This document shows positions 22,879 to 35,974 of a stretch of DNA of 64,000 nt, piece after piece. The stretch spans positions 1-64,000 of the forward strand of contig NZ_BONQ01000052.1 in assembly GCF_016862795.1 (NCBI RefSeq). The letters run 5' to 3'. A model generated the notes under the pieces. The model searched no databases and had not been told where the DNA came from. It saw only the letters and a program-made list of their open reading frames with translations. The translations under genes and the position numbers were made by a program. Source of the DNA: Dactylosporangium siamense. GTDB taxonomy: Bacteria; Actinomycetota; Actinomycetes; Mycobacteriales; Micromonosporaceae. Every line of letters starts with the position of its first letter. Position 1 is the stretch's first letter.

Positions 22879-23325
22879 TCAGGCGTCGAACCACTCCGTG
22901 ACGAAGGTGACGCCGTCGTCGAACGTCACCCCGACCCGGTGCCGGCCGGGCGTGAGGCCGTCGACCTGGAACCGCCCGCGCTCGTCGGCACGGGTCGTCC
23001 GAGTGTCGCCCGGCTTCTCTATGGTCACGGCGGCCGGCGCCGGTGGATCCAGCTGGCCGAGCAGCCGCAGGGTGCCGTCGTCGGTCGACAGCTCGAGCAC
23101 CACCGTGACGTCGTCGCGTTCAAACGTCAGCAGCCGCGCCGCGCCGCCGCGCACGTGTGCGAGCTCCCGTCCGGTCGAGGCCGTGTCGTCGGTGAGCCGG
23201 GCGAGCTCCCGGTCGAGGTTGCGCCATGCCAGCGCCTCGAACCCGGCCAGCACGAACCGGTCCGGGACAGGGTCGGCGTCGCGCCACAGGGACTGCAGGG
23301 CGTCGCCGAGAGCGTCGTCGTTCAT
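22879..23325 (-). CDS. Sigma-linked protein with carboxypeptidase-regulatory-like beta-sandwich
   Basis: A 148-residue soluble protein. Residues 1-50 are helical and acidic (DDALGDALQSLWRDADPVPDRFVLAGFEALAWRNLDRELARL). The middle has two beta strands (ARLLTFERDDVTVVLEL). Residues about 93-146 form a carboxypeptidase-regulatory-like domain (VTIEKPGDTRTTRADERGRFQVDGLTPGRHRVGVTF). There is no membrane segment and no zinc motif, so it is not a classical anti-sigma factor. It lies 53 bp downstream of the ECF sigma gene in the same direction, with GAGGTG before the ATG. From memory, this architecture recurs beside ECF sigma and CHAT genes in actinomycetes; that is unverified. A regulatory or substrate role in the CHAT cassette is a hypothesis. 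Confidence 0.75.
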   Translation of the reverse strand: MNDDALGDALQSLWRDADPVPDRFVLAGFEALAWRNLDRELARLTDDTASTGRELAHVRGGAARLLTFERDDVTVVLELSTDDGTLRLLGQLDPPAPAAVTIEKPGDTRTTRADERGRFQVDGLTPGRHRVGVTFDDGVTFVTEWFDA

Positions 23326-23378
23326 CGGGCACCTCGCGCGTTCGGTCTGGCACGGAATGGCGGCTTCTGGTGGCCGGG

Positions 23379-23921
23379 TCAGTCGGTCATGATCGACCGG
23401 AGACCGGCGAGGCAGCGCGCCCGGGTGGGGCCGATGCTGCCGATCGGGATGTCCAGCGCGGCACCGACCGTCTCGTAGCTGGGTGCCGGGTCCGCGAACA
23501 TGACCCTGAGCAGCCGCTGGCACCCGTGCGACAGCCGCGACACCGCCTGCCACAGGACGCGCTGGGACTCGTCGCGCAGCAGGCGCTCGTCGACCGCCGG
23601 CGCCACCGCCGCGGCGCCCAGCCCGTCGACGTCGTCGACGGGCAGGTCCCGTCCGGCCCGGCGGATCAGGTTGAGCGCCTCCCGGCGGGCCGTCGTGGCC
23701 AGCCAGCCGGGAAGCCGCTCGGCGTCGCGGATGTCGTGCAGGTGCTCGACCAGCCGCAGCCACGTGCCCTGCACCACGTCGCCGGCGTCGGCGGTGGACA
23801 GCCGGAAGCCGCGTGCGATGGACCAGACGAGGCTGGAGTAGGTGGTGACGATGGCGTTCCAGGCTTTTTGGTCGCCCTCGGCCGCGGCCGCCAGGGCGGC
23901 CGCGGGATCGAAATCAGTCAC
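23379..23921 (-). CDS. ECF-type RNA polymerase sigma factor
   Basis: A 180-residue sigma-70 family protein with regions 2 and 4 only. Region 2 is AWNAIVTTYSSLVWSIARGFRLSTADAGDVVQGTWLRLVEHL (about residues 19-60), the linker is PGWLATTARREALNLIRRAGRD, and region 4 is ESQRVLWQAVSRLSHGCQRLLRVMF...YETVGAALDIPIGSIGPTRARCLAGLR (about 118-175). The GTG at 23921 lies 7 nt after TAGGGT (23929-23934), so the mRNA is likely leaderless. An ATG at 23966 is in frame but gives an atypical N-terminus. No transmembrane anti-sigma gene is next to it; the neighbours are a beta-sandwich protein and two proteases. Confidence 0.9.
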   Translation of the reverse strand: MTDFDPAAALAAAAEGDQKAWNAIVTTYSSLVWSIARGFRLSTADAGDVVQGTWLRLVEHLHDIRDAERLPGWLATTARREALNLIRRAGRDLPVDDVDGLGAAAVAPAVDERLLRDESQRVLWQAVSRLSHGCQRLLRVMFADPAPSYETVGAALDIPIGSIGPTRARCLAGLRSIMTD

Positions 23922-23985
23922 GCCCGGAACCCTAACAGCCGTTGCCACGGCACGATGTCCGTTCATGTCCTACCCCGCTGACCGC

Positions 23986-25101
23986 TCATGCCAGGCCGGG
24001 CAGGCCACCGTAGGAGCGCGCGGTCGCCTCCTTGCGCACGAGATCGGCGGCGCCCAGCACGGAACCCGCCGTGCGGTGGTGGCTGGCGATCGCCGCCGCG
24101 GCGTACGGGGCGGCGAACGAGGTGCCGCTCCACCGCGCGAAGCCGGTCGGGAAGTCGTCGTGGGTGACATACGTGCTCGTGACGTCGGCGCCGGGGGCGG
24201 TCACGTCCACCCACGCGCCGCTGTTGCTCCACGAGCACAGCTCCGTGCCGTCGTGTGCGGCCACGGCGAGCACCTGCGACGCGAACGGCAGCGCCGTGCC
24301 GGCGAACGCCGCCGGCCAGTACGGCCGGTCGCTGATGCCCTCGTTCCCGGCGGCCGCCACGACCACCCGGTCCCGGCCGCGCAGCAGCTTCGTCAGCGCG
24401 GCCGCCAGCAGCAGCGGCGGGCGGTCGTTGCGGGTGAACCCGCCGAGGGACAGGTTCACCACGTCGACGTCGGTCAGGGCGAACAGGGCCCGGGCGAGGT
24501 CGACCTCGGTGCACAGGCCGTCGGCGTCGAGCACCTTGATCGCGCGCACCCGGGCGTTGTCGGTGCGGGACATGACGACGCCGATGATGAAGTTCGCGTG
24601 ACCGAGGTCGGTGCCGGAGACCAGTTCCTCGTCGAGGTCGTCGGTCTCGTACCAGTGCGACGGCAGCGGGCTGTCGGCCCACACCGCGGTGTCCAGCACG
24701 GTCAGCCGCACCGCGGCGTCCGCGGCCGGGCCGCCGTCCAGCGGGTACATCTCGGCGGTGACCGGCGGGCCGTAGGGGCCGCCCATCTCGAACGGGTTGG
24801 ACAGGAACACGTGGTTGGGTGCGGCCGCACCGGTCGGCAGCGCCGCCGTCACCATCTCCGGTTCGGCGCCGGGCGCGGCCAGCCGCACGAAACCGGCGAC
24901 GGCCGGCAGTGCCCTGATCGCCGCGGGCGCCACCCCCGCCGACACCAGCGCGGCGCGGGCCGCCTGCTCGTGGTCGGCGGCCACCAGCACCTCGTTCCGG
25001 GTGCGGCGCACCGGCCGGCCGGTCGCGGTGTCGGTGTGCAGCCACGGCAGCGCCGCCAGCCGGGCAGCGCGGCGCTCGTTCCAACGTCCAAACTGAGCCA
25101 T
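23986..25101 (-). CDS. Cytoplasmic S8 (subtilisin-like) serine protease
   Basis: A 371-residue S8-family protein. The catalytic triad is visible: Asp137 in LTVLDTAV, His168 in GHANFIIG and Ser328 in SGTSFAAP, with the oxyanion Asn253 in AAAGNEG. No signal peptide or membrane segment is present, so it should act in the cytosol. Residues 1-125 precede the catalytic domain and may be an inhibitory or targeting region. GAGGAAG lies 7 nt before the ATG. It is divergent from the TPR-CHAT gene with 42 bp between this start and the small leaderless ORF, and it is in line with the sigma gene, suggesting a joint function. Confidence 0.9.
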   Translation of the reverse strand: MAQFGRWNERRAARLAALPWLHTDTATGRPVRRTRNEVLVAADHEQAARAALVSAGVAPAAIRALPAVAGFVRLAAPGAEPEMVTAALPTGAAAPNHVFLSNPFEMGGPYGPPVTAEMYPLDGGPAADAAVRLTVLDTAVWADSPLPSHWYETDDLDEELVSGTDLGHANFIIGVVMSRTDNARVRAIKVLDADGLCTEVDLARALFALTDVDVVNLSLGGFTRNDRPPLLLAAALTKLLRGRDRVVVAAAGNEGISDRPYWPAAFAGTALPFASQVLAVAAHDGTELCSWSNSGAWVDVTAPGADVTSTYVTHDDFPTGFARWSGTSFAAPYAAAAIASHHRTAGSVLGAADLVRKEATARSYGGLPGLA

Positions 25102-25130
25102 CGCAGATCTTCCTCACGTGTCGCCGTGGA

Positions 25131-25143
25131 TAGGATGCGCAAG
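25131..25143 (+). promoter_or_regulatory. -10 element of the CHAT operon
   Basis: TAGGAT (25131-25136) followed by gcgcaag and the ATG at 25144 repeats the TANNNT-N7-start pattern seen at many genes in the window. It places the transcription start at or next to the first base of the 20-codon ORF. No good alternative promoter lies between it and the CHAT start at 25203. Confidence 0.55.
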
Positions 25144-25206
25144 ATGACGGGCGTGGACGGTCCCCTGATACATCCGGGCGGAAGTATTTCTGGCCCGGTG
25201 GCATGA
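25144..25206 (+). CDS. Leaderless 20-residue ORF overlapping the CHAT start
   Basis: The ORF encodes MTGVDGPLIHPGGSISGPVA and stops at TGA 25204-25206, overlapping the CHAT ATG at 25203 (ATGA). TAGGAT lies 7 nt before its start, so ribosomes would begin at the 5' end of the mRNA and reach the CHAT start by coupling. The CHAT start itself has no strong ribosome binding site. The peptide has no signal or membrane features and ends in a Gly/Pro-rich stretch. It could be purely a coupling leader, or a functional peptide such as a protease substrate or inhibitor. Confidence 0.5.
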   Translation: MTGVDGPLIHPGGSISGPVA

Positions 25207-27803
25207 CCGTCCCCGCCGACCAGCTCCTGCAGGCGATCCAGGCCGACCCGCACCGCGCCGCCGCCGACGCGCGCGAGGCGCTCGCCAAGGCCCGTGCCGT
25301 GCGCGACCACGCCGCCGCGGCCGCGGCGCAGCGCGTGCTGGGGCTTGCCGCGCACGGGCTGCACGACGTGACCGCCGCCGCCGCGCACCTGCGCGCGGCG
25401 ATCCGCTCCGCACACCGGGCCGGGGACGCCACCGTGGAGGCCGAGTGCCGCATGAGCCACGCGCTCGTGCTCGACGACCGCGGCGCGTCCGCGGCGGCGC
25501 TGCGCGAGATCGAGCGGGCCTGCCTGCAGCTCACCGGCCTGCGCCTGGCCCGCGCGACCATGCAGCGGGCGCTGATCCTGCGCCGGGTCGGCCGCGACGA
25601 CGACGCCCTCGCCGGCTATCAACGCGCGCTGACCGCCTTCCGGCAGCACGGCGACGCGCTGTGGGAGGGCCGCGCCCTGGTGAACCGTGGGGTGCTGCGC
25701 GGGTACCGCGGCGAGCTCGGCCCGGCCCGGGCGGACCTCGGCCGCGCGGTGCAGATCTTCACCGACCTGGGGCTGCCCGACGCCGTCGCGCGGACCCAGC
25801 ACAACCTCGGCTTCCTCGCCGCGCAGGCGGGCGACGTGCCGGCCGCGTTGTCGCACTACGACCAGGCCCGTGACCGCCTCGCCTACGTCGGCGCCGCCGC
25901 GGTCACCCAGCTCGACCGGGCCGAACTGCTGCTCACCGCCCGGCTGCGGCCCGAGGCGCGGGCCGCGGTCGGCGAGGCGGTCGAGGCCGCCCGGGCCGGC
26001 GCGTTCTCCTCGCTGCTCGGCCAGGCGCAGCTGCTGTCCGCGCGGATCGAGCTGGTCGGCGGCGACGCCGGCCTCGCCCGGACCCTCGCCCGGCAGGCCC
26101 GGGCCACGTTCACCCGGCAGTCCCGCCCGATCTGGGCGGCGCTCGCCCACCGGGTCGAGCTCGGCGCGAGGGTCGCGGCCGCCGGCGGCAACCGGCGCGT
26201 CCTGCGGGACCTGGAGACGGTCGGCGACCGGCTGGCCGCCGCCGTCTGGCTGCCCAGCGCCTGGGACACCTGGGTCGACGCCGCGCACGTCGCCGTCGAC
26301 CTCGACGACATGGCCACCGCGACCCGCTGCCTCGAGAAGGCCGACGCCGGCCGGCACGCCGGGTCGGCGCCGCTGCGGGCGCGGGCATGGCACGCCGCGG
26401 CACGCATCGCGCTGCGGGAGGACCGGCTGCCGGTCGCCAAGCGCCGGCTCGCCGCCGGCTATCGCGACATCGAGCAGCACCAGGCCACGCTCGGCGCCAC
26501 CGAGCTCGGGATGCGCGGCGGCGCCGTCGGCGTCGACATCGCGGCGGCCAGGCTGCGCCTCAGCCTCGGCGAGGGCGACGCCCGTGGCGCGCTGACCTGG
26601 CTGCAGCGCGTCCGCAGCGCGGCGCTACGGTTGCCGCCGGCCCGCCCGTCCGACGACCCGGTGGTCGAGGCGCTGCTCGCGGAGCTGCGCACGGTCGCGA
26701 CGGAGAGCGCCACGACCGCGATCGACTCGCCGCGCACCGCGCGGCTGCTGCGCCGCCAGCGCGCGATCGAGGCCGAGGTGCGGCAGCGGTCCTGGCTGAG
26801 CGCCGGCACCCCGGTCGCGGCCCGCCGCCCGCCCACGCTCGCTGCCCTGTCCGCGGCGCTCGGCGACCGGGTGCTCGTCGAGCTGGCGGCGCTCGACGGC
26901 CAACTGCACGCGCTGGTGCTCGCCGACGGCCGCGTGCGGCACCGCCGGCTGTGCCCGGTCGAGCCGGTCGCGACGGAGCTGACCGCGCTGCGGTTCGCGA
27001 TCCGCCGGCGGGTCGTCTACCCGGGCACCCGCATCGCCGCCCGCGCCGACGACGCGGCGGCGTACTCCGCCGGCGTCCTCGACCGGCTGCTGCTGCGCCC
27101 CCTCGCCGACCTGCTGGACGAGCGGCCGGTGGTGCTCGTGCCCAGCGGCGCCCTGCACGCCATGCCGTGGGCGATGCTGCCGACCTGCCACGGGCGGGCG
27201 GTGACGGTCAGCCCGTCGTCGTGGCAATGGTGGTGGGCCGCGACCGCGGACCCCCACGGCGGGCACGGGCGGGTCCTGGTCGCCGGGCCCGCGCCGCACC
27301 ACGCGAGTGTCGAGGTCACCGCGCTCGCCGGATGGCTGCCGGCGGTCACCGCCCTCACCGGCGCCGCGGCGACGGTGACCGGCGCGCTGCGCACCCTCGA
27401 CGGCGCGGCGCTGGGGCACGTGGCGAGCCACGGCGTGTTCCGCGCCGACAACCCGATGTTCTCCCACCTGATCCTCGCCGACGGGCCGCTCACCGTGTGC
27501 GACCTGTCGGCGCTGCGCCACCCGCCGGAGCTGCTGGTGCTGTCCTCGTGCGACGCGGGGTTGTCCGCGGTGCACCCCGGCGACGAGCTGCAGGGGCTGG
27601 CGGCGGCGCTGCTCGGGCTCGGCACCCGCACCGTCGTGGCGAGCCTCGGTCCGGTCGACGACGAGGACACGCTGCGGCTCATGACCGACCTGCACCGCCG
27701 CCTCGCCGACGGCGTGGCCCCGGCCGTCGCGCTGGCCCGGGCGCAGTCGGCCGGCGTGGACCGGATCAGCGCGGCGACGTTCATCTGCCTGGGCGCCGGC
27801 TGA
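25203..27803 (+). CDS. TPR-CHAT protein (caspase-like protease)
   Basis: An 866-residue protein. Residues about 1-520 are TPR-like helix pairs (for example AVARTQHNLGFLAAQAGDVPAALSHYDQARDRL). The C-terminal part from about 600 is a CHAT domain (caspase HetF associated with TPRs). The catalytic dyad is present: His743 in HVASHGVF and Cys783 in LVLSSCDAGLS, followed by GDELQGLAAALLGLGTRTVVASLGPVDDEDT. CHAT proteases are activated through the TPR part by a partner or ligand and cut specific proteins; in CRISPR type III-E the TPR-CHAT protein cleaves Csx30, which controls a sigma factor. Here an ECF sigma, a beta-sandwich protein and an S8 protease are adjacent, but no CRISPR genes. The partner and substrate are unknown. 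Confidence 0.92.
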   Translation: MTVPADQLLQAIQADPHRAAADAREALAKARAVRDHAAAAAAQRVLGLAAHGLHDVTAAAAHLRAAIRSAHRAGDATVEAECRMSHALVLDDRGASAAALREIERACLQLTGLRLARATMQRALILRRVGRDDDALAGYQRALTAFRQHGDALWEGRALVNRGVLRGYRGELGPARADLGRAVQIFTDLGLPDAVARTQHNLGFLAAQAGDVPAALSHYDQARDRLAYVGAAAVTQLDRAELLLTARLRPEARAAVGEAVEAARAGAFSSLLGQAQLLSARIELVGGDAGLARTLARQARATFTRQSRPIWAALAHRVELGARVAAAGGNRRVLRDLETVGDRLAAAVWLPSAWDTWVDAAHVAVDLDDMATATRCLEKADAGRHAGSAPLRARAWHAAARIALREDRLPVAKRRLAAGYRDIEQHQATLGATELGMRGGAVGVDIAAARLRLSLGEGDARGALTWLQRVRSAALRLPPARPSDDPVVEALLAELRTVATESATTAIDSPRTARLLRRQRAIEAEVRQRSWLSAGTPVAARRPPTLAALSAALGDRVLVELAALDGQLHALVLADGRVRHRRLCPVEPVATELTALRFAIRRRVVYPGTRIAARADDAAAYSAGVLDRLLLRPLADLLDERPVVLVPSGALHAMPWAMLPTCHGRAVTVSPSSWQWWWAATADPHGGHGRVLVAGPAPHHASVEVTALAGWLPAVTALTGAAATVTGALRTLDGAALGHVASHGVFRADNPMFSHLILADGPLTVCDLSALRHPPELLVLSSCDAGLSAVHPGDELQGLAAALLGLGTRTVVASLGPVDDEDTLRLMTDLHRRLADGVAPAVALARAQSAGVDRISAATFICLGAG

Positions 27804-27807
27804 GCGG

Positions 27808-29343
27808 TCAGCCCCGCCAGGCCTGCGCCTCGATGCCGGGCTCGGGCGGCCGCGGGCCGCGGAGCCGGGCCGCCGTGGTGACCGCCGCGGACACCACCGC
27901 TCCCCCGATCGCCACCAGGACGGCGATCCGGGCCGCGGTGTCGTAGCCGTCCGGGTTCCCGGCCGACCAGCCGTAGAACGACCAGCCGATGCCGACCGCG
28001 GTCAGCACCGCCACGCCCAGCACACCCACCGGATGCCACCACCGCAGCCCCCGGTCACCGGCAACCGTCGCCAGGCACCAGACCAGACCCGCCATCGCGA
28101 CCACGATCCCGAAGATGCCGGCGAACCACGTGCCGGCGGCGACCCCGACCAGCAGCGCGAGCGAGCCGAGCACGGTCAGGCTGGCCGCGCCCGCCGCGAG
28201 CCGCCGGCGGCGGGTCAGCACCGGCAGCAGCGCGAGGCTGACCAGGACCGGCACCGCCGACCCGGCCAGCGTGAACTCCAGCCAGACGTGCTGCCCGGCT
28301 CCGACGAGCGGATCAGCCTCCGGCGGGACCCTGTCGGACGGCACCCCGACCCGCTGCCAGGTCCCGTCGGCGAACCTGACGGCGAGGCCGTCGCGCCGGT
28401 TGGCGACGAACACGAGGTGGCCGCCGGTGACCGGCAGCACGGCCACCTCGGCCGAGGCCAGGTCGACGCGGGTCGACCCGAGGTCGTCGACCTGCCTGGC
28501 CAGGAACTCCCGCCGCCCGTCCGAGACCTCCCAGGACATCCGCCAGGTCCGGCCGTCGTCGACGGTCTCCTCGACGGCCATCCGCCCGGGCACGACGCGG
28601 TAGCAGTGCCCTGGCCGGTCGGGCACACACGCCTGGGTGTTCAGCGGCGGCGATGTCGGCGGCAGGGTCGCCGTCGACGGGGGATCCTCCACCCAGGTCC
28701 GGCCGTCGCTCGTCGACAGCCAGGTCGAGGGCCACGACTCCGCGGTCGGGTCGGCGTTGAGCGCGTGGAAGCCGTTGTACAGCCCGACCAGCGCCCGGCC
28801 GTCGACCACCTGGACCCGGGCCACGGCCGGGTAGTACGGGGCGCTGGTGGCGGCGACCGCGAGCACCGCCACCGGGAGCACCAGCGCGGCGCGCACGGTC
28901 CGGGTCCACCGCTCCGGCAGCTCGGCCTCGCGCACCCGGGTCCAGGTCCACCAGGCGACCGCGAGCGCCGGCAACGCGACGAGGTCGGTCCCGTCGGCGA
29001 GCACCGTGGACGGCCGCACCAGGCTCCACGCCGCCGACGCGAACCCGGCCCCGGCCGTCGTGGCCTTCACCCAGGTGAACGCGAGCCCGACGCCGGCCAG
29101 CCCGGCAACGGCGGCGAGCCCGGCCGGCACGCGCGGGACGAGCAGGCACAGCACCGCCGCGACCAGCGCCGGGGCGAAGACGAGCCCGGCGACGTCGCTC
29201 AGCTTGCCGGTGACCGCTCCCGGGTACGCCGCCTTCAGCAGGTGATCGTTGACCAGCAGCACGACAACCGCGCCGACGGTGACCGGGTGGGTCATCCAGG
29301 CAAGGGCGACCGCGACGTGCCGCATACCGGAGGTGCGCTCCAT
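27808..29343 (-). CDS. Hypothetical multi-TM protein with extracytoplasmic beta-rich domain
   Basis: A 511-residue membrane protein. The N-terminal third has about four to five membrane segments (VTVGAVVVLLVNDHLL, LSDVAGLVFAPALVAAVLCLLV and onward). The central part, about residues 165-345, is soluble and beta-rich with repeated Trp-containing STSDGRTWVEDP and VDDGRTWRMSWEV blades that resemble WD/sialidase-like (BNR) repeats. The C-terminal part has further membrane segments. A second ATG six codons downstream is also possible. It converges on the CHAT gene with 4 bp between the stops. Function unknown; a link to the CHAT cassette is not shown. Confidence 0.75.
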   Translation of the reverse strand: MERTSGMRHVAVALAWMTHPVTVGAVVVLLVNDHLLKAAYPGAVTGKLSDVAGLVFAPALVAAVLCLLVPRVPAGLAAVAGLAGVGLAFTWVKATTAGAGFASAAWSLVRPSTVLADGTDLVALPALAVAWWTWTRVREAELPERWTRTVRAALVLPVAVLAVAATSAPYYPAVARVQVVDGRALVGLYNGFHALNADPTAESWPSTWLSTSDGRTWVEDPPSTATLPPTSPPLNTQACVPDRPGHCYRVVPGRMAVEETVDDGRTWRMSWEVSDGRREFLARQVDDLGSTRVDLASAEVAVLPVTGGHLVFVANRRDGLAVRFADGTWQRVGVPSDRVPPEADPLVGAGQHVWLEFTLAGSAVPVLVSLALLPVLTRRRRLAAGAASLTVLGSLALLVGVAAGTWFAGIFGIVVAMAGLVWCLATVAGDRGLRWWHPVGVLGVAVLTAVGIGWSFYGWSAGNPDGYDTAARIAVLVAIGGAVVSAAVTTAARLRGPRPPEPGIEAQAWRG

Positions 29344-34267: not shown

Positions 34268-35974
34268 ATGCCAGACCGAATTGCCGCAGGTCAACCATCG
34301 CCGACCCGGCACGACACCGTCGCCGCACTCCTGGACGAGATCACCACTGACCCGGGGGGCGTGGTGAGCGCCTCGATCTACGACACCGCCCGACTCGTCA
34401 GCCTTACCCCTTCGCTGCCCGGGCATACCGCCCGGCTGCGGTTCCTCCTTACACAGCAGCGCAGCGACGGATGCTGGGGAGAGGCAGACGGCTACGCGCT
34501 CGTGCCGACACTGAGCGCCACCGAAGCCATTCTCGCCACCCTCCACCGGCCGTCGGCGGCCGGCATCGAGGCCGGGCAACTGCGCAGCTCGGCGCTGCGG
34601 GGCCTCACCGCGCTGCGGCGCTGGTCGGGCAGCCACGAGTCCGTGCCTGACACGATCGCGGTTGAGGTCGTCGTGCCTGCCCTGATCGCCGCCATCAACA
34701 GCCACCTCGACGGCCCGGATCCCGTCGTCGCCAGCGACGTTCGGCTGGCCGTGCCGGCAGGCATGAACCCCGACGCGGCAAGGCATCTGACGGCCCGCGT
34801 GCGTGACCACGCCGGCAGCGACCCGCAGACCTGGTGGGCGTCGCTGGAGGTGCTCGGCGCGGACGCTGCCCGCATCGCCACGGTGCGACCGCACGAGCAG
34901 GGAATGATCGCCTGCTCGCCGGCGGCAACCGCAGCATGGCTGGGCGAGAACCCGGACCACAGCACGCCCGCCGCGGCAGCCGCGGCGCGGTATCTCAGCC
35001 GGCTGCAGGCGGCCGGCGGCGGACCGGTCGCCGGTGTCTGGCCGATCACCTTCTTCGAGCGGTCCTGGGTCCTGAGCGTCCTGGCGCCGGCCATGTCCAG
35101 CCAGCCGGCACCCGCCAGCGTCCTGGACAGCCTCGACGGCGCGCTCGGACCAGGCGGCGCAAGCGCCGCGCCCAGCCTCCCGCCGGACTGCGACGACGCC
35201 GCGGTGGTGCTCACCGCACTGCACCGCCACGGCCGGCCACGGCCCGTCGACCCGCTCCTGACCTACTACACCGGCAGCTATTTCCGGTGCTTCCCAACCG
35301 AGCGAACCGCGTCGGTGAGCACCACCGCGCACGCCCTCGAGACGCTGCACGAGGCGATCGTCGCCCAGCCGGCCGAGCGCCTGCGGCTGGACCCGATCGC
35401 CGAGGCGACCGCTGCCTGGCTGGTAGAGACTCAAACGGCTGACGGCAGTTGGTGGGACAAATGGCATGCCTCGCCGTACTACGCGACGGCCTGCTGTGTC
35501 GACGCGCTGACGCCCTACACCGTCGTCCTGGCCGGATCCACGGCCACAACGACGGTGGGTGCAGCGGTCAAGCACGCCGTCCAGCGGGCCGTGGCGTGGA
35601 CAGTGGCCACACAGCACACCGATGGGTCATGGGGCCGCTGGGGCGGCAGCGTCGAAGAGACGGCCTACGCCGTGCAGATCCTCACCCGTGCCGGCGGCGT
35701 CGGTCCCGATGTCGCCGCAGCGGTTGCGGCCGGCGCGGCATACCTGCGGCAGCAGCACGGCAGTGGCCCGCACCGCGGTCTGTGGCACGCCAAGGACCTC
35801 TACGCCCCAGTGCGGGTGATCCGGGCCACCCGGCTCGCCGCGCTCGCCGCTGCGGAGCGGTTCGCGGTCACCTCCGGTGCAGCACGAAACGCCCCGGCTG
35901 GCGCGGCCGCAGTGCCGCGGTTGCCCGCGCCACGAGAGGCCCAGACCCGACGAGCTCTGGCCGATGCCGACTGA
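34268..35974 (+). CDS. Class II diterpene cyclase (copalyl-diphosphate-synthase-like)
   Basis: A 568-residue alpha-barrel terpene cyclase. The proton-donating DxDD motif is D307-C-D-D310 in LPPDCDDAAVVL. QW-like motifs are QQRSDGCWGEADGYALVPTLSATEAILATL near residue 65, QTADGSWWDKWHASPYYATACCVDAL near 393 and QHTDGSWGRWGGSVEETAYAVQIL near 450. It should protonate and cyclise GGPP to a labdane-type bicyclic diphosphate (copalyl, halimadienyl or similar). No class I DDxxD is present, which fits the separate class I synthase encoded nearby. The 3' end overlaps the convergent P450 gene by 107 bp. The ATG has only a weak ribosome binding site. Confidence 0.9.
   Translation: MPDRIAAGQPSPTRHDTVAALLDEITTDPGGVVSASIYDTARLVSLTPSLPGHTARLRFLLTQQRSDGCWGEADGYALVPTLSATEAILATLHRPSAAGIEAGQLRSSALRGLTALRRWSGSHESVPDTIAVEVVVPALIAAINSHLDGPDPVVASDVRLAVPAGMNPDAARHLTARVRDHAGSDPQTWWASLEVLGADAARIATVRPHEQGMIACSPAATAAWLGENPDHSTPAAAAAARYLSRLQAAGGGPVAGVWPITFFERSWVLSVLAPAMSSQPAPASVLDSLDGALGPGGASAAPSLPPDCDDAAVVLTALHRHGRPRPVDPLLTYYTGSYFRCFPTERTASVSTTAHALETLHEAIVAQPAERLRLDPIAEATAAWLVETQTADGSWWDKWHASPYYATACCVDALTPYTVVLAGSTATTTVGAAVKHAVQRAVAWTVATQHTDGSWGRWGGSVEETAYAVQILTRAGGVGPDVAAAVAAGAAYLRQQHGSGPHRGLWHAKDLYAPVRVIRATRLAALAAAERFAVTSGAARNAPAGAAAVPRLPAPREAQTRRALADAD

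What the first reader, a model, noticed from the sequence alone, without database searches (positions are those of the whole stretch)
22879..27803. CRISPR-free TPR-CHAT protease / ECF sigma / S8 protease cassette
Four genes in 5 kb encode an ECF sigma factor, a small carboxypeptidase-regulatory-like protein, a cytoplasmic subtilisin-like protease with an intact triad (D137, H168, S328) and a divergent 866-residue TPR-CHAT protein with an intact His743/Cys783 dyad. In CRISPR type III-E, TPR-CHAT cleaves Csx30, which restrains a sigma factor; in CalpL/T/S a protease frees a sigma factor. Here similar parts stand together with no CRISPR genes and no ordinary membrane anti-sigma. The hypothesis is a proteolytic switch in which CHAT or S8 cuts the beta-sandwich protein or the sigma factor after an unknown trigger, as stress or defence signalling.
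Basis: partly seen in the sequence, partly recalled or inferred. Interest (0 to 1): 0.85.

Follow-up and report, generated by a model that had tools for sequence, protein, structure and literature searches.

The report
Protease-controlled sigma factor gene cassette
Four neighbouring genes form a regulatory module, found throughout the actinobacteria, in which two intracellular protein-cutting enzymes probably decide when a transcription switch (a sigma factor) is released; the gene set is already known as the setting of sigma group ECF54, but its promoter signature and an invariant arginine that could be the cutting point are new, testable details.

Summary
The window encodes a soluble cassette S8 protease > ECF sigma > small "CarbR" protein, with a divergent TPR-CHAT gene; catalytic residues are intact. 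It is not a local oddity: relatives occur in 98 of 297 actinomycete genomes; 86 of 131 loci with full flanks hold all four genes, in many arrangements; in Jiangellaceae, where SIG-CarbR stands alone, an S8-CHAT pair sits elsewhere in the genome. Nor is it new in kind: a 2022 review describes sigma group ECF54 with this context (carboxypeptidase, subtilase, CHAT, no anti-sigma) and proposes proteolytic control. What I add: (1) a bipartite promoter, TGTATCA-N16/17-CTC, in front of S8 or SIG units but never CHAT, so sigma probably drives S8 and itself while CHAT acts upstream; (2) CarbR is a helical hairpin plus beta-sandwich joined by a disordered linker holding an arginine invariant in 159 of 159 proteins, a candidate cleavage site; (3) a modelled sigma-CarbR chain shows sigma in an anti-sigma-bound arrangement (no sigma-only control). 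Best model: CarbR is a soluble anti-sigma-like protein cut by CHAT; freed sigma then makes S8. Contact, cleavage, trigger and any defence role are unshown. Member of a known kind with newly testable parts.

The parts
25203..27803 (+). TPR-CHAT protease gene, 866 aa, dyad H743/C783
   Evidence: Pfam CHAT E 1.2e-32, TPR_12 E 1.5e-8; dyad conserved 114/114
23986..25101 (-). S8 subtilisin-like protease gene, 371 aa, triad D137/H168/S328, no signal peptide
   Evidence: Pfam Peptidase_S8 E 1.5e-19; triad conserved 118/118; no hydrophobic segment
23379..23966 (-). SIG: ECF sigma factor gene, 195 aa
   Evidence: Sigma70_r2 E 6e-14; TIGR02937 59.2 bits over its cut-off of 42.9; family alignment A2
22879..23325 (-). 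CarbR: small protein, 148 aa; helical hairpin, disordered linker, beta-sandwich; candidate soluble anti-sigma
   Evidence: CarboxypepD_reg E 2.9e-6; model; SIG directly upstream in nearly all relatives
23146..23175 (-). disordered linker of CarbR, residues 51-60; the codon of invariant Arg59 is 23149-23151 (candidate cleavage site)
   Evidence: pLDDT under 50 at residues 51-60; Arg59 159/159
25166..25172 (-). -35-like element TGTATCA of the candidate sigma promoter of S8-SIG-CarbR
25144..25148 (-). -10-like element GTCAT (consensus CTC(T)), 17 nt behind TGTATCA, about 42 nt in front of the S8 start
   Evidence: weaker than the consensus

Best explanation
The cassette is a soluble proteolysis-to-transcription switch of the ECF54 type. 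At rest the small CarbR protein, encoded directly behind the sigma gene, holds the sigma factor inactive, probably through its N-terminal helical hairpin (inferred). CHAT, whose gene is not under this promoter, senses an unknown trigger, probably through its TPR part (inferred), and cuts CarbR after the invariant arginine in the disordered linker between hairpin and beta-sandwich (inferred). Freed sigma reads TGTATCA-N16/17-CTC promoters and transcribes S8-SIG-CarbR units (promoter architecture shown, recognition inferred). The detectable regulon is almost only these units, so a burst of cytosolic S8 protease is the main output; whether S8 is executioner, amplifier or terminator is undecided.
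For: SIG sits directly in front of CarbR in nearly all loci while S8 and CHAT move around them. S8 and CHAT stay paired even when far from SIG-CarbR. Both active sites are invariant. Promoter in front of first-in-unit S8 and SIG, 1/64 for SIG behind S8, never CHAT; all four SIG-less cassettes keep a motif (relaxed form in one). CarbR = hairpin + disordered linker + beta-sandwich with Arg59 invariant 159/159 and Gly/Ser/Ala behind it in 143. In the SIG-CarbR model sigma takes the arrangement of SigW/RsiW and CnrH/CnrY (3.0-3.4 A over about 150 residues) and not that of holoenzyme sigma (26-28 A). Precedents: Csx29-Csx30-CASP-sigma (PMC10028731) and CalpL-CalpT-CalpS (PMC12751052).
Against: No contact or cleavage has been measured. 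The model has no sigma-only control and no PAE, and ECF sigma factors are often solved as anti-sigma complexes, which may bias it. The coevolution test was inconclusive. Arg59 could have a structural or binding role. Four cassettes have CarbR beside S8 without SIG, so CarbR may also work with S8. Csx30 is not cut after an arginine as far as its paper tells.
Confidence: 0.5

Rival explanations
1. Published ECF54 proposal: there is no anti-sigma; the proteases keep the system off by degrading the sigma factor itself, and a signal stops the degradation. CarbR would be an adaptor or scaffold.
For: Stated in PMC8999054 section 3.3 for ECF54 and shown by experiment for AntA (ClpXP). The S8 unit is under the sigma-type promoter, which would suit negative feedback.
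Against: It gives no role to CarbR, the most constant partner of sigma, nor to its invariant Arg59.
Confidence: 0.2
2. CarbR is mainly the partner of S8 (substrate, inhibitor or targeting subunit); CHAT activates S8, S8 cuts CarbR, and sigma is freed at the second step of a protease cascade.
For: CarbR stands beside S8 without SIG in four loci (L040, L080, L099, L104). CHAT and S8 are paired where the set is split.
Against: 24 loci have SIG-CarbR without S8 nearby. S8 is itself made by the switch, which makes it a poor first trigger.
Confidence: 0.18
3. S8 and CHAT are effectors of a suicide or defence response; the sigma factor only regulates their supply, and CarbR is a ligand sensor for sigma without proteolysis.
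For: S8 is a promoter target and almost the only one found. CHAT has a weak hit to BovA. The CarbR beta-sandwich is of a common type that could bind ligands.
Against: CHAT is never behind the sigma-type promoter, so it is not a co-regulated effector. An invariant Arg in a disordered linker suggests processing.
Confidence: 0.1

Closest known systems
ECF sigma group ECF54 (Huang 2015, Casas-Pastor 2021, as summarised in PMC8999054)
   Same: ECF sigma with conserved carboxypeptidase-like, subtilase and CHAT genes and no anti-sigma; proteolytic control proposed; named example from Geodermatophilus, an actinobacterium
   Different: The review names no promoter or cleavage site and treats sigma degradation as the mechanism; the ECF54 sequence model was not available here
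Type III-E CRISPR Craspase (Csx29-Csx30-CASP-sigma)
   Same: TPR-CHAT protease with His/Cys dyad, encoded beside an ECF sigma factor and a third protein made of two domains and a flexible loop (PMC10028731)
   Different: No CRISPR genes found here; Csx29 model far below cut-off; CarbR is 148 aa against at least 565 for Csx30; an additional S8 protease
CalpL-CalpT-CalpS (type III CRISPR, Lon protease)
   Same: A protease frees a sigma factor by cutting a soluble anti-sigma (PMC12751052)
   Different: Lon-SAVED protease activated by cyclic oligoadenylate; no SAVED or Lon domain was found in the four proteins
Borvo (BovA) defence protein
   Same: CHAT domain; weak profile match over about 95 residues
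   Different: Only the CHAT core matches (22.9 bits); different gene setting

Membership tests
ECF54 | ECF sigma factor (sigma2 and sigma4, no fused extension) | tested here: met
   195 aa; TIGR02937 over cut-off; two-domain sigma in the model of a relative
ECF54 | Context of carboxypeptidase-like, subtilase and CHAT genes, without anti-sigma | tested here: met
   window and 86 of 131 full-flank loci; feature as given in PMC8999054
ECF54 | Score over the ECF54 classification model or phylogenetic placement | not testable with these tools
   Model not held; representative SFT86700.1 not retrievable. Geodermatophilus siccatus (L215) has SIG-CarbR, G. obscurus no CarbR
Type III-E Craspase (Csx29) | Csx29 family score | tested here: not met
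   NF041237 12.3 bits, cut-off 300
Type III-E Craspase (Csx29) | CRISPR array or gRAMP/Cas7-11 beside it | tested here: not met
   No CRISPR-like repeats in the window; six neighbouring proteins without cas families. The rest of the genome was not searched for cas genes
CalpL-CalpT-CalpS | Lon-SAVED protease | tested here: not met
   The proteases are S8 and CHAT; no Lon or SAVED match in Pfam or NCBIfam
Borvo defence system | BovA-type CHAT protein | tested here: inconclusive
   PADLOC BovA E 7e-6 over residues 743-836 only, 22.9 bits

The most novel reading that the evidence does not exclude
A CRISPR-free, fully soluble caspase-like switch spread through the actinobacteria: a separase-like CHAT protease cuts a small anti-sigma after an invariant arginine, and the freed sigma factor has essentially one job, to make a cytosolic subtilisin, so that one protease triggers the synthesis of another through a dedicated promoter.
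Probability: 0.35. Interest if true: 0.8.

Novelty: new member of a known kind. Interest (0 to 1): 0.58.

Why it matters
Relatives of this cassette occur in about a third of the actinomycete genomes sampled, and I found no experimentally known signal, regulator or regulon for ECF54. An invariant arginine, a consensus promoter and a clear split between an upstream protease (CHAT) and a target protease (S8) turn a general proposal into a few decisive experiments. If right, the CHAT-to-anti-sigma logic known from type III-E CRISPR also exists as a CRISPR-free signalling module, which bears on where the Craspase parts came from.

Tried and rejected
Chance neighbourhood: rejected by conservation across genera and by the split loci. 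Sequence search of CarbR against solved structures: nothing significant. Fold search of CarbR: a common beta-sandwich (CrdA Z 9.8, then many unrelated Ig-like folds), no functional hint, and the N-terminal hairpin barely tested. Wider regulon: the strict motif in 20 genomes gave 29 matches against 13 for the reversed control, and the excess is about the number of cassette-linked sites, so no wider regulon was found with the strict motif; weaker sites would be missed. An apparent CarbR-S8 fusion (L056) is an open frame running antisense to CHAT. A profile of diverse SIG sequences had no stretch usable for the genome scan; a closer set was used. The original ECF54 papers are not held; only the review was read.

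Full report
Observation. The four genes are real and as described. On the minus strand S8 (23986-25101), SIG (23379-23966) and CarbR (22879-23325) follow each other with gaps of 19 and 53 nt; TPR-CHAT (25203-27803) is divergent. Domain assignments hold. None has a strongly hydrophobic segment. No CRISPR-like array was seen, and flanking genes are ordinary.

Conservation. A profile of CarbR, the most specific marker, finds 98 of 297 actinomycete genomes and 50 of 115 genera. I fetched about 180 loci, including 80 named ones from Micromonosporaceae to Solirubrobacter and Nitriliruptorales. Of 131 loci with full flanks, 86 hold all four genes, 24 only SIG-CarbR, 11 SIG-CarbR-CHAT, 7 SIG-CarbR-S8, and 3 lack SIG. 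The order varies widely (S8>SIG>CarbR with divergent CHAT; S8>SIG>CarbR>CHAT; SIG>CarbR with S8 or CHAT on either strand), yet SIG stays directly in front of CarbR. Eight named loci found by SIG have no detectable CarbR. In the family with SIG-CarbR only (Jiangellaceae, by the record of L218), all 13 genomes tested have a CHAT protein elsewhere, and all 9 of those loci that I examined carry a divergent S8 gene beside it. The four-part set thus survives physical separation. The counts are of loci, not of independent events, and some genomes appear twice under different identifiers.

Active enzymes. In alignments of cassette proteins the S8 triad is intact in 118 of 118 and the CHAT dyad in 114 of 114 proteins that cover the sites; 14 further CHAT sequences were cut or split.

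Promoter. Intergenic regions share TGTATCA followed by CTC(T) after 16 or 17 nt. The heptamer occurs 115 times in 171 loci; five scrambled heptamers and the reversed one occur 7 to 26 times in the same set. At starts of transcription units the strict motif precedes S8 in 46/110 and SIG in 23/93 cases; it precedes SIG inside units in 0/68 and first-in-unit CHAT in 0/83; the reversed motif gives 0. With one changed base allowed: S8 leading S8-SIG-CarbR 44/62, S8 in separate units 12/41, SIG first of its unit 48/97, SIG behind S8 1/64, CHAT 0/87 and 0/37. The two-block form and spacing are those of an ECF promoter. That this SIG reads it is inferred from its fixed place in front of SIG-containing units. 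The window copy lies at 25172-25166 with a weaker -10-like GTCAT. In the host genome such sites also precede an S8-SIG-CarbR unit and an S8-CHAT pair about 41 kb apart on contig C154, and a SIG-less S8-CarbR-CHAT cassette on C118, so several cassettes probably share one regulon. In 20 genomes, sites beyond the cassettes do not clearly exceed the reversed control, so the detectable regulon is narrow; one extra gene beside CHAT in Catellatospora and Allorhizocola carries the site.

CarbR. The model of the window protein shows two helices (3-17, 22-50), a disordered stretch (51-60) and a beta-sandwich (64-143). In 159 family members Arg59, inside that stretch, never varies, although neighbouring positions and linker length do; Val precedes it in 120 and Gly, Ser or Ala follows in 143. 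The only other residue as invariant is Gly117. An invariant arginine before a small residue in a flexible linker is what a processing site looks like; separases, which CHAT resembles (PMC9729208), cut after arginine (general knowledge). That CHAT cuts here is an inference; S8 or no protease at all remain possible.

Sigma with CarbR. In some relatives the two genes are in frame with one stop codon between them. For 12 such loci I read that stop as glycine, as a computational device only, aligned them with separate SIG and CarbR rows, and modelled the L139 chain: mean pLDDT 88, pTM 0.69. Its sigma2-sigma4 arrangement matches SigW in SigW/RsiW and CnrH in CnrH/CnrY at 3.0-3.4 A over about 150 residues, but holoenzyme sigma factors only at 26-28 A when both domains are aligned. 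Without a sigma-only control this is suggestive only.

Known or new. PMC8999054 (section 3.3) describes ECF54 with conserved carboxypeptidase, subtilase and CHAT genes and proposes proteolytic control without an anti-sigma. This cassette fits that description, so the kind is known; I could not run the ECF54 model. Compared with Craspase the logic is alike (there Csx30 binds and inhibits CASP-sigma until Csx29 cuts it), but membership is not met. I found no report of the promoter or of Arg59 in the papers I could search; the original ECF54 papers are not held, so an earlier description of the promoter cannot be excluded.

Judgement. Shown: conservation, core pair SIG-CarbR, paired CHAT-S8, intact active sites, promoter architecture, invariant Arg59 in a predicted disordered linker. 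Inferred: CarbR restrains sigma; CHAT cuts at Arg59; sigma reads the promoter; S8 is the main output. Unknown: trigger, substrate of S8, biological role. I rate a single functional module at well over 0.9 and the specific CHAT-CarbR-sigma route at about 0.5.

Noticed in passing
L050 2520, L051 12008, L140 4039, L142 4195 (Catellatospora, Allorhizocola): A further gene of 223-251 aa directly behind CHAT carries the full TGTATCA-N17-CTCT site; its C-terminal part resembles the CarbR beta-sandwich weakly. Candidate extra regulon member.
   Followed up: partly
L179 2510, L189 5304 (Patulibacter, Solirubrobacteraceae): The promoter motif stands in front of a protein with a CxxxCxxC radical-SAM-like motif (CNLACGHC) near the cassette.
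   Followed up: no
window 34197 (+): A second TGTATCA lies 71 nt in front of a 568-aa gene (34268-35974), in AT-richer DNA and with CTC at an unusual distance; probably chance.
   Followed up: no
L106-L108, L110, L111, L115, L134: Cassettes with CHAT but no detected S8, whose sigma factors have lost the otherwise conserved GSIGPTRxRCL motif of region 4.
   Followed up: no
L181, L184, L187, L197, L200, L206, L210, L217: Close SIG relatives without CarbR, S8 or CHAT nearby (Solirubrobacterales, Nitriliruptorales, Geodermatophilus obscurus); possibly a sister ECF group.
   Followed up: no
host genome G000: Nine CHAT matches. Cassette-like units lie on contigs C29, C52 (window), C118 and twice on C154; the C118 one has no sigma gene.
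   Followed up: partly
window 27808-29343 (-): A 511-aa membrane protein without Pfam match ends 5 nt from the CHAT stop codon; I did not see it in the relatives' loci I looked at.
   Followed up: no
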